A DNA stretch of 54,405 nt from an uncultured Spartobacteria bacterium (GTDB lineage: Bacteria; Verrucomicrobiota; Verrucomicrobiia; Chthoniobacterales; Chthoniobacteraceae), in contig CAIRYQ010000053.1 of NCBI GenBank assembly GCA_903882875.1, forward strand, positions 1 to 54,405. The letters run 5' to 3'. The translations under genes were made by a program, and so were the position numbers. Of this stretch, positions 30,323 through 31,817 are shown piece by piece. Positions within the stretch are counted from its first letter, which is position 1; each line of letters starts with the position of its first letter. The notes beneath the pieces were generated by a model that was not told the DNA's origin, searched no databases, and saw only the letters and a list, made by a program, of their open reading frames with translations.

Positions 30323-30718
30323 TCAGATAATGCTTTTCTTTGAATTTGCGGCTAATGGCAAAGCAAATTTGGATTTTCTTTTGGGACAAGGGACTGATTT
30401 GTTAGAAGACCGTGGCCTCGGTATCCACTCCATCTCCCGCGAGCACGGTTCGCGGTCCTGCGTGTCGCCGCCGGTGGGCGATGTGACGAAGGGGCCGCCG
30501 GCGAGCGGGGCGGCGCGGGAGAATGCGACGTCGGGCGTGTCGCTGTCCTTGCCGACGAGCGGGAAGTCCTTTCGCAGCGGATGGAACGGATAGCCTTCCC
30601 ACATGAGGATGCGGCGCAGGTCGGGATGGCCGGTGAACCGGATGCCCATCATGTCGAACACTTCGCGCTCGTGCCAGTCGGCGGTGGCCCACAGATCGGT
30701 GACGGCGTCCTCGTTCAC
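30323..30718 (-). pseudogene. nuoC: Orphan nuoC (NADH dehydrogenase subunit C) fragment
   Basis: The frame encodes the C-terminal signature of NADH-quinone oxidoreductase subunit [21 protein letters not shown], then [20 protein letters not shown]. About the first half of NuoC (roughly 80-100 residues) is missing, and beyond about 30420 the frame runs into AT-rich DNA with an unrelated tail. No other nuo gene is nearby. It appears to be a rearranged or duplicated remnant; a complete copy presumably exists elsewhere in the genome. Confidence 0.8.
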
Positions 30719-31197
30719 GGCTGCAATTTGCTTTCGCGCCCGCCGCGCCGTGGGCGGTCAGAACTCGGACGGGCGTCGGGGAGTGAGGGGGTCTGGGGGG
30801 AGCGAGGGGTTGAGAAAGGATGAAGCAGGATTCCGGTGCTGCTCCGAGAGGCGGATTTCCGGGGGTGAGACTCGGTGGTGGCGAGATTCATGCGCTCAAG
30901 CGTTGTTTTCGAGCATGAGCATCCGCTCCGCTTTGCCAAGCATTTTTCCGGCAGCGGGCTTTGGCGGGGTGCTGCTCCGTGGCCTCAGTCGGAATCGAGG
31001 ACGAGGAAACAGGCTCAGGAACAGGCTCAGGCGACGATTCTTGACAGACGAATCCTTCGCGACTGCAACCACCTCGTTGTGGTCCGGTTGGAGGGACGGG
31101 AGTCGGCGGCGCTCACGTCGCTTTATTTTCCCCTGCGTTGGCCGGATAAAAGGACTTACCGCCCGCACGCGGCTTCGCTCGAAGTGTTTGCTGGCTG
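30719..31197. other. Non-coding accessory stretch
   Basis: Several open frames exist on both strands but none has a recognisable domain or sensible start. A short motif CAGGCTCAGGAACAGGCTCAGG is duplicated in tandem near 31010. A phrase close to CGCCCGCACGCGGCTTCGCTCG (31162-31182) recurs in altered form near 31734-31755, so some of this is probably degenerate repeat DNA. Confidence 0.4.
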
Positions 31198-31443
31198 CTA
31201 TGGGATTTCCTCACCGGCTGGAACCTGGCCGATCCGGAGAAAAGTTTTCAAATATTCGCCTTCTCCGCACGCGATCATTCCGGGGAATCGCTTGAACCAT
31301 TTCCCAACGGGCACTTCGGGTTCACCAGTGAGCCATTCGGAAAGCAATTGAAGCTGCCCGATTGGGATTTCCCTGTCACGCACGCGGTCTTCCAAGTGCG
31401 CCACGAGGGCGCGAGGCACGTTGCGCCGCCGAATTCTAGGCAT
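31198..31443 (-). CDS. Small conserved protein, second gene of a putative toxin-antitoxin-like pair
   Basis: An 81-residue basic protein, MPRIRRRNVPRALVAHLEDR..., with a conserved-looking core EVPVGKWFKRFPGMIACGEG followed by EYLKTFL. I recognise the pattern from PVC genomes, where it follows a small MNAAAIIDEIKRLP-type gene, but no biochemical function is known to me. The ATG at 31441-31443 overlaps the end of the upstream gene by 8 bp (ATGCCTAG), implying coupled translation. An upstream in-frame start (31458) would add five residues. The arrangement suggests toxin-antitoxin or another two-component small-protein system. Confidence 0.7.
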   Translation of the reverse strand: MPRIRRRNVPRALVAHLEDRVRDREIPIGQLQLLSEWLTGEPEVPVGKWFKRFPGMIACGEGEYLKTFLRIGQVPAGEEIP

Positions 31444-31657
31444 CCGGCTCGTCTCCAAAAAAACCTGCGACGATTTGTTCCTTCAATCGCCGCGCCTCCG
31501 CAGGATCATTTGTTTCGACCATCTTCTTCTCGTATTCCGTGAGCTTCTCGCCGCTCCAAGGCTGCCGTATTTCGAGGGTCTGCACGAATTCCGCGATCTG
31601 CTTTTGTTCGGGAGGCGGCAGACGTTTGATCTCATCAATGATTGCGGCTGCATTCAT
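31436..31657 (-). CDS. Small antitoxin-like protein, first gene of the pair
   Basis: A 73-residue protein. The N-terminus MNAAAIIDEIKRLPPPEQKQ and the acidic C-terminal part (ETNDPAEARRLKEQIVAGFF) match a small family resembling antitoxins of the RelB/DUF2281 kind, with a helical N-terminus and flexible tail. No ribbon-helix-helix is obvious. It overlaps the downstream gene by 8 bp. Antitoxin first, partner second, is the usual order for such modules; function is inferred from size, order and overlap only. Confidence 0.72.
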   Translation of the reverse strand: MNAAAIIDEIKRLPPPEQKQIAEFVQTLEIRQPWSGEKLTEYEKKMVETNDPAEARRLKEQIVAGFFGDEPDA

Positions 31658-31817
31658 ACTGGGAAGCTACCTGCCGATTTGTTTCGTGACAAGCGACGAT
31701 TCCTTCGGGGCCGCGTAAAAAATGGCTCTGCGCCCACACGCGGCCTCGCTCGCAATTTCAGGGCTGTGCGGTCATGCAAATAGTGATGCCTGCCCGGCGC
31801 TGATTTGCGCTAGCCGC

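What the first reader, a model, noticed from the sequence alone, without database searches (positions are those of the whole stretch)
31198..31657. Overlapping small-gene pair of unknown function
An antitoxin-like 73-residue protein overlaps by 8 bp an 81-residue basic protein with a conserved VGKWFKRFPGMIACGEGEYLKTF core. I recall the pair from PVC genomes as a frequent, uncharacterised unit. Size, order, overlap and location in accessory DNA suggest a toxin-antitoxin or related defence module, whose partner protein matches no toxin fold I know.
Basis: partly seen in the sequence, partly recalled or inferred. Interest (0 to 1): 0.6.

Follow-up and report, generated by a model that had tools for sequence, protein, structure and literature searches.

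The report
Small overlapping toxin–antitoxin gene pair
Two tiny overlapping genes in a verrucomicrobial bacterium look like a mobile poison-and-antidote pair whose poison matches no family in the libraries searched and shares a motif with a phage enzyme that cuts messenger RNA; nothing has been tested in the laboratory.

Summary
The pair is real: gene A (31436-31657, minus strand, 73 aa, acidic) overlaps gene B (31198-31443, minus, 81 aa, basic) by 8 nt. B has no significant Pfam, NCBIfam, PADLOC, PHROGs or PDB match. Homologues lie in Verrucomicrobiota, Acidobacteriota and single records of other phyla. In all 80 loci examined (best 80 of 124 found) an A-type gene precedes B. Its protein ends in one shared ~35-residue tail (..GF[YF]G), while the N-terminal half is exchanged: helical IIxEI, ribbon-helix-helix-like, Xre-type helix-turn-helix, others. 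The IIxEI half, with another tail, also precedes Fic/Doc genes. Orphan tails occur; full-length B without the tail was not seen. Best reading: a type II toxin–antitoxin module, A the modular antitoxin, B the toxin. AlphaFold gives B a confident helix-helix-sheet fold. Its only solved neighbours with Z of 2 or more come from ParE and YafQ entries, but weakly (Z 3.4 or less). A profile comparison links its H-x3-R-x3-R-x-I helix with the catalytic His48 helix of T4 RegB, so an mRNA endoribonuclease is the likeliest activity. Toxicity is untested. The ~0.5-kb unit is mobile and often bracketed by direct repeats.

The parts
31436..31657 (-). Gene A, predicted antitoxin, 73 aa, predicted all-helical (H3-11, H15-28, H36-48, H52-66)
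   Evidence: AlphaFold pLDDT 90.1, pTM 0.59
31451..31570 (-). C-terminal tail of A (match of tail profile A3), shared by the B-linked antitoxins; predicted toxin-neutralising element
31198..31443 (-). Gene B, predicted toxin, 81 aa, predicted H11-23 H28-39 E48-53 E56-61 E64-69 E78-80
   Evidence: AlphaFold pLDDT 95.3, pTM 0.83
31366..31398 (-). H16-x3-R20-x3-R24-x-I26 of B, aligned with the His48 helix of T4 RegB; candidate active-site helix
   Evidence: His48 catalytic per PMC3014915
31436..31443 (-). 8-nt overlap of the two genes
   Evidence: the same 8-nt overlap in 21 of the 78 kept loci for which the script listed an upstream frame
31147..31707 (.). Extent of DNA similarity to the nearest relatives (L054: 31147-31707; L053: 31194-31686): the unit that moves
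31160..31181 (+). Left copy of a degenerate direct repeat (20 of 22 nt shared with 31731-31752)
   Evidence: a like repeat brackets the pair in L054
31731..31752 (+). Right copy of the degenerate direct repeat

Best explanation
The pair is a type II toxin–antitoxin module (the confidence given is for this). A is the antitoxin, translated first: its N-terminal half dimerises and/or binds the operator (inferred), its C-terminal two-helix tail ending GF[YF]G wraps the toxin (inferred). B is the toxin, a minimal RelE/ParE-superfamily (BECR-like) protein. Within the module reading I think it most likely (about 0.55) an endoribonuclease acting on mRNA, with H16, R20 and R24 on the first helix, and perhaps K51 and K66 on the sheet, cleaving or binding RNA by analogy with T4 RegB. 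Losing the unit would leave stable toxin without labile antitoxin (general type II logic, recalled). Shown here: gene pair, linkage, domain exchange, predicted fold, motif similarity, mobility. Inferred: toxicity, neutralisation, RNase activity, autoregulation.
For: Linkage: tail-bearing gene upstream of B in 80 of 80 kept loci (76 by script; L078, L108, L110, L125 by eye) and at 19 of 19 full-length or nearly full-length B in relatives (G142's match lacks the first 13 residues). Modularity: 49 IIxEI, 25 RHH-like, 6 other N-termini (L097 reassigned by hand); 6 changes of type on the B tree. HTH type: HTH_37 E 2e-5 for L017, 7.7e-4 for L131, both below Pfam's cut-off. The IIxEI half with another tail precedes Fic/DOC genes in L049 and L052. 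Asymmetry: of 27 tail loci at E<=1e-3, 19 adjoin such B, 2 a broken B, 6 no B by profile, 3 of these 6 with a clearly intact tail; 5 of 80 kept B frames hold a stop while the upstream tail is open. Fold: pLDDT 95; of 330 chains realigned the only four at Z>=2 come from ParE and YafQ entries, Z 2.6-3.4. B against RegB: score 29.0, E 1.5e-4; 0 of 150 column shuffles reach it (best 20.6). Conservation in A2: H16 73 of 74, R20 71, R24 74, K51 70, K66 71.
Against: No experiment. Fold matches are weak: no Foldseek hit at E<=0.001, and Z of 3.4 or less is within what the tool calls a common arrangement. B shows no profile similarity to ParE, YafQ or RelE-type genes of related genomes (probability under 1%), though the same method also missed ParE against YafQ (3.9%). 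The RegB match is 18 columns, probability 51.5%, on a RegB alignment of 8 similar rows, and one of six profiles tried. RegB's second catalytic histidine has no counterpart: H16 is the only histidine of the window's B. RHH is below Pfam's cut-off (5 of 20 members, best E 0.019). No plasmid, phage or viral-contig copies found. 44 of the 124 stretches were not returned, so their linkage is unknown.
Confidence: 0.8

Rival explanations
1. It is a toxin–antitoxin module, but B is not a ribonuclease: it poisons gyrase or another target, like ParE, with the same fold and no catalytic site. (A variant within the module reading.)
For: Two of the four solved neighbours are from ParE entries (3kxe, 6xrw). 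B has a single conserved histidine.
Against: The conserved polar set H16, R20, R24, K51, K66, T67, C59 would be unusual for a pure binder (judgement). The motif similarity is to an RNase, RegB; none was seen to ParE.
Confidence: 0.25
2. The pair is a conserved regulatory operon without toxicity: A a DNA-binding regulator, B its co-regulator or RNA-binding partner.
For: No toxicity data; purifying selection on both genes; not found on plasmids or phages.
Against: Patchy distribution (21 of 147 genomes), different flanks of near-identical copies, two copies in some genomes, exchanged N-terminal halves and loss of B but not of the tail fit a selfish addiction module better.
Confidence: 0.12
3. 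The roles are reversed: A is the toxin, B the antitoxin.
For: Gene order alone does not settle roles; both orders occur among BECR-toxin modules (PMC11980606, Table 1).
Against: A is acidic, predicted all-helical and swaps its N-terminal half; B is basic and one conserved alpha/beta domain. The A half also precedes Fic/DOC genes. Orphans are A tails, not B.
Confidence: 0.04

Closest known systems
RelE/ParE superfamily (BECR-fold) type II toxins, 13 Pfam families in Table 1 of PMC11980606 (section 5)
   Same: Small basic partner of a modular antitoxin; helix-helix-sheet order; the four structural neighbours at Z>=2 come from ParE and YafQ entries.
   Different: None of the 13 reached Pfam significance; of them only DUF4258 appeared, in 1 of 74 members at E 0.16. 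No profile similarity to ParE, YafQ and RelE-type genes of related genomes. If the fold is right, a further family.
Phage T4 endoribonuclease RegB (Pfam REGB_T4)
   Same: H-L-L-D-R-x3-R-E-I helix (RegB residues 48-58; His48 catalytic per PMC3014915); profile match E 1.5e-4; REGB_T4 is the Pfam family named by most members (3 of 74, E 0.16).
   Different: RegB has 153 aa and an extra N-terminal helix, and an antitoxin is only raised as a possibility in the passages read; B has 81 aa, is antitoxin-linked and has one histidine.
DUF4258 toxins (PF14076)
   Same: N-terminal H-A-...-R-x-I motif and antitoxin-first order; target unknown.
   Different: Profile match weak (probability 9.8%, E 0.0033, 20 columns).
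Modular type II antitoxins with a linear neutralising element (e.g. Phd-C, PMC10440598, passages)
   Same: A short terminal element attached to different other domains.
   Different: This tail is not named in the passages read; in the relatives examined it lay next to B, next to B remnants, or alone.

Membership tests
Type II toxin–antitoxin module | Two small adjacent co-oriented genes, consistently linked | tested here: met
   80 of 80 kept loci (of 124 found); 19 of 19 full-length or nearly full-length B in relatives
Type II toxin–antitoxin module | Antitoxin built of a DNA-binding/dimerisation part and a toxin-binding part | tested here: inconclusive
   Exchange of N-terminal halves on a fixed tail is clear. 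Xre-type HTH E 2e-5 but below Pfam cut-off, RHH weak (5 of 20, E 0.019), IIxEI half unassigned (DUF2281 E 0.046, DUF4238 E 0.017). Binding not shown
Type II toxin–antitoxin module | Toxin inhibits growth and antitoxin protein neutralises it by binding | not testable with these tools
   Needs expression and pull-down
Type II toxin–antitoxin module | Patchy, mobile distribution | tested here: met
   21 of 147 genomes; different flanks; bracketing repeats 19 of 79 against 8 of 312 random placements
RelE/ParE (BECR) superfamily | BECR fold | tested here: inconclusive
   Element order fits; neighbours at Z>=2 from ParE and YafQ entries but Z 3.4 or less; no significant Foldseek hit
RelE/ParE (BECR) superfamily | Significant sequence match to one of its Pfam families | tested here: not met
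   best E 0.16 (DUF4258, 1 of 74 members)
RegB | Significant match to Pfam REGB_T4 | tested here: not met
   3 of 74 members, best E 0.16
RegB | Helix with catalytic His48 | tested here: inconclusive
   hhalign E 1.5e-4, probability 51.5%, 18 columns; above all 150 column shuffles; supports works-like, not membership
RegB | Second catalytic histidine (His68) | tested here: not met
   H16 is the only histidine of the window's B; no other histidine is invariant or nearly so in A2

The most novel reading that the evidence does not exclude
B is a bacterial, antitoxin-controlled counterpart of phage T4 RegB: a further BECR-fold toxin family that cleaves mRNA with a RegB-type His/Arg helix. It is neutralised by one ~35-residue tail that has been joined to several unrelated N-terminal domains, and the 0.5-kb module spreads by inserting at gene 3' ends and leaving a duplicated gene end behind it.
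Probability: 0.3. Interest if true: 0.65.

Novelty: new member of a known kind. Interest (0 to 1): 0.48.

Why it matters
If true, it adds a toxin family in Verrucomicrobiota and Acidobacteriota that the Pfam, NCBIfam and PADLOC models searched here do not recognise, so surveys relying on such models would miss these pairs. The RegB-like motif would connect a phage mRNA-cutting enzyme with chromosomal toxins. The fixed tail on exchanged N-terminal halves is a ready test case for linear, graftable neutralisation.

Tried and rejected
Chance open frames: rejected (selection; homologues). Sequence membership of ParE, YafQ or RelE-type families: hhalign against profiles from related genomes (19, 20 and 9 rows) gave probabilities under 1%. 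Controls in the same call: ParE against RelE-type 94%, YafQ against RelE-type 45%, but ParE against YafQ only 3.9%, so a negative is weak evidence. Solved homologues by sequence: none. Foldseek: nothing at E<=0.001 in PDB or BFVD. RegB's own structure (2hx6) does not appear among the rows, which excludes nothing. Fold of A: only scattered helical matches, best Z 3.7. PADLOC: none for A or B. Phages, plasmids, viral contigs: none. The phylum-wide survey gave 3 of 387 genomes, the own one included, but at most 14 candidates per genome were scored, so it is a lower bound and not used for prevalence.

Literature searches by words listed no paper that I recognised as describing this family; they cannot show that it is unpublished. 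Seen: PMC11980606 passages and section 5; PMC3014915, PMC2701414, PMC10440598 passages; all others as search listings.

Direct repeats depend on method: 9 of 80, 12 of 78 against 14 of 2340 random placements, 19 of 79 against 8 of 312; ParE/YafQ pairs, by a slightly different layout, 3 of 49. Some loci are near-copies, so counts are not independent. The window's own pair passed none of the blastn thresholds; its repeat was seen by eye first and then checked as a pattern, so that chance estimate is after the fact.

Full report
What is there. On the minus strand, gene A (31436-31657, 73 aa) and gene B (31198-31443, 81 aa) overlap by 8 nt. A is acidic (pI 4.67), B basic (pI 9.09). In three pairwise comparisons among the window, L053 (labelled Prosthecobacter debontii MAG) and L054 (labelled Akkermansia muciniphila MAG), both genes show mainly third-position changes and dN below dS. 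DNA similarity covers only 493 and 561 bp, the two genes and little more, inside 10-kb loci. In the window a beta-lactamase-family gene lies upstream (PF00144); in L053 the pair follows a gene that I read as leuC (name recalled).

Family of B. B was found at E<=0.01 in 21 of 147 genomes, the own one included: 19 loci with a full-length or nearly full-length match (G142's lacks the first 13 residues), 4 with broken or partial copies. A pattern-plus-tblastn scan of one genome each of 84,980 species found 124 stretches; the best 80 were returned. Titles name Verrucomicrobiota, Acidobacteriota, one record without a phylum, and single records of Planctomycetota, Lentisphaerae and Betaproteobacteria. 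Nearly all are metagenome bins, so the single records may be binning errors. The two sets overlap (for example L002 and L053 are one locus). B has no significant match in Pfam, NCBIfam, PADLOC, PHROGs or, by sequence, the PDB.

Linkage with A and domain exchange. All 80 loci carry upstream of B a gene whose protein ends in a common tail, about L[ST]xEELxxLAxx......EAxxLKExIxRGFYG. The script's motif found it in 76. By eye it is also there in L078 (ending RRFYG), L108 and L110 (a larger gap before B) and L125 (larger gap, GYYG). The window's own tail ends GFFG. The overlap is 8 nt in 21 of the 78 loci for which the script listed a frame (one of the 78, L108, was the wrong frame); the rest range from a 1-nt overlap to a 48-nt gap. 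The N-terminal half differs: 49 loci have a helical IIxEI type as in the window, 25 an RHH-like type, 6 others (classes by regular expression, L097 reassigned by hand). Library support for these halves is modest: RHH_1 in 5 of 20 members scanned, best E 0.019; HTH_37 E 2e-5 and HTH_3 2.5e-4 for L017, HTH_37 7.7e-4 for L131, all below Pfam's cut-offs; DUF2281 E 0.046 and DUF4238 E 0.017 for the window's A. L114 looks Phd/YefM-like to me, without library support. On the B tree (4 of 77 inner branches starred, 46 open) the types need six changes, the least possible for seven states. Conversely, in L049 and L052 the IIxEI half carries a different tail and precedes a Fic/DOC gene (PF02661 E 9.4e-10 and 1.5e-13). 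This is the architecture of modular antitoxins, a neutralising element and an exchangeable second domain (PMC10440598, passages).

Asymmetry. A profile of the tail alone (A3) matched 27 loci at E<=1e-3 in the same 147 genomes: 19 adjoin the 19 full-length or nearly full-length B, 2 a broken B, and 6 have no B by profile in the sequence held. Of these six tails three are clearly intact (G006 twice, G064) and three degraded or split; beside one (G006:C13) a possible B remnant is visible by eye. Two B fragments (G020, G085:C15) lack a tail match at that level. Among the 80 kept loci, 5 B frames contain a stop (L086, L088, L092, L097, L128) while the upstream tail is open, although in L097 A has also lost its start. 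B can be lost while A stays, and full-length B without A was not seen, as expected if B is harmful alone. Sequencing errors in metagenome bins could explain some of the stops.

Fold and motif of B. AlphaFold2 with 74 sequences gives pLDDT 95.3 and pTM 0.83: two helices followed by four strands, the order of RelE/ParE toxins (recalled). Foldseek finds nothing significant. Of 330 top chains realigned, four reached Z 2, from entries 3kxe and 6xrw (ParDE), 4mmg (YafQ) and 9lew (DinJ-YafQ): Z 2.6-3.4, rmsd 3.7-4.0, 65-68 residues. The table names entries, not chains; their lengths of 90-94 fit the toxins. Among viral models a protein annotated 'site-specific RNA endonuclease' is rank 7 (TM 0.50, E 1.2), which I read as RegB-like. 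Profile comparison was negative with ParE, YafQ and RelE-type genes of related genomes (its control ParE against YafQ was missed too), weak with DUF4258 (probability 9.8%, E 0.0033, 20 columns) and best with T4 RegB (51.5%, E 1.5e-4, 18 columns). None of 150 column shuffles of the RegB alignment reached its score of 29.0 (best 20.6). The matched segment is H-L-L-D-R-x3-R-E-I. RegB's His48, one of its two catalytic histidines (PMC3014915, passages), aligns with H16 of B (73 of 74), followed by R20 (71 of 74) and R24 (74 of 74). The same passages describe RegB's fold as similar to RelE and YoeB. B has no counterpart of RegB's His68.

Interpretation. I rate a type II toxin–antitoxin module at 0.8. 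Within it, an RNA-cleaving BECR-like toxin seems more likely than a ParE-like poison of another target, but neither is shown. PMC11980606 (section 5) lists 13 Pfam families of such toxins; B reaches significance in none, so if the fold is right it is a further family.

Mobility. Direct repeats bracket the pair in 19 of 79 loci tested (80 kept loci plus the window, two dropped for short flanks) against 8 of 312 random placements in the same loci, and 3 of 49 ParE/YafQ pairs. At the protein level, 15 of 77 loci show such a repeat. In 7 (L053, L056, L075, L086, L112, L122, L126) both copies, on the strand of the pair, end within two residues of an open-frame end (no random control for this count). 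In four of the seven (L053, L075, L122, L126) the upstream frame is long (282-472 codons in the stretch examined); in the other three it is 80-118 codons and may not be a gene. L053 reads as leuC and L075 as icd (names recalled). This suggests insertion at gene 3' ends with a duplicated, often diverged, gene end. No recombinase is part of the unit, so how it moves is open.

Noticed in passing
L053, L075, L122, L126 (clearest); L056, L086, L112 (short upstream frames): The pair follows the 3' end of an open frame, and a second, often diverged copy of that end lies after B (3-111 nt after it in six, 424 nt in L056), as if the unit inserts at gene ends and duplicates them.
   Followed up: partly
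window 30326-30718 (-), duplicated part 30426-30705: Orphan 3'-end fragment of nuoC (PF00329 positions 71-122) about 480 bp downstream of B on the same strand. The genome has a complete copy on contig 2 (97.5% identical over 280 bp) and another fragment on contig 84 sharing a 430-column, 83% alignment with the window.
   Followed up: partly
window 31160-31181 and 31731-31752; L054 flanks: Degenerate hairpin-like repeat (GCCGCGTgaGGGCTG.AAGCCCTTTTACGCGGC type) on both sides of the pair. Better copies lie elsewhere in 3 of 10 genomes of the genus: 2 places in the own genome, 6 in G004, 1 in G008.
   Followed up: partly
window 31664-31692 (-): By eye, TTGTCA-N17-TAGCTT with its last base 7 nt before the ATG of A; L053 and L054 have similar blocks there. 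Possibly a promoter with almost no leader; not tested.
   Followed up: no
BFVD A0A6J5SZS4 (rank 1): An uncultured phage protein annotated as sigma-70-like (575 aa) is the best viral structural match to B (probability 0.87, TM 0.51 by query, 20% identity, E 0.11); it may carry a B-like domain.
   Followed up: no
L129 and L130: Two copies of the pair with identical B and A proteins lie about 6 kb apart on one contig, JAIBCL010000004.1.
   Followed up: no
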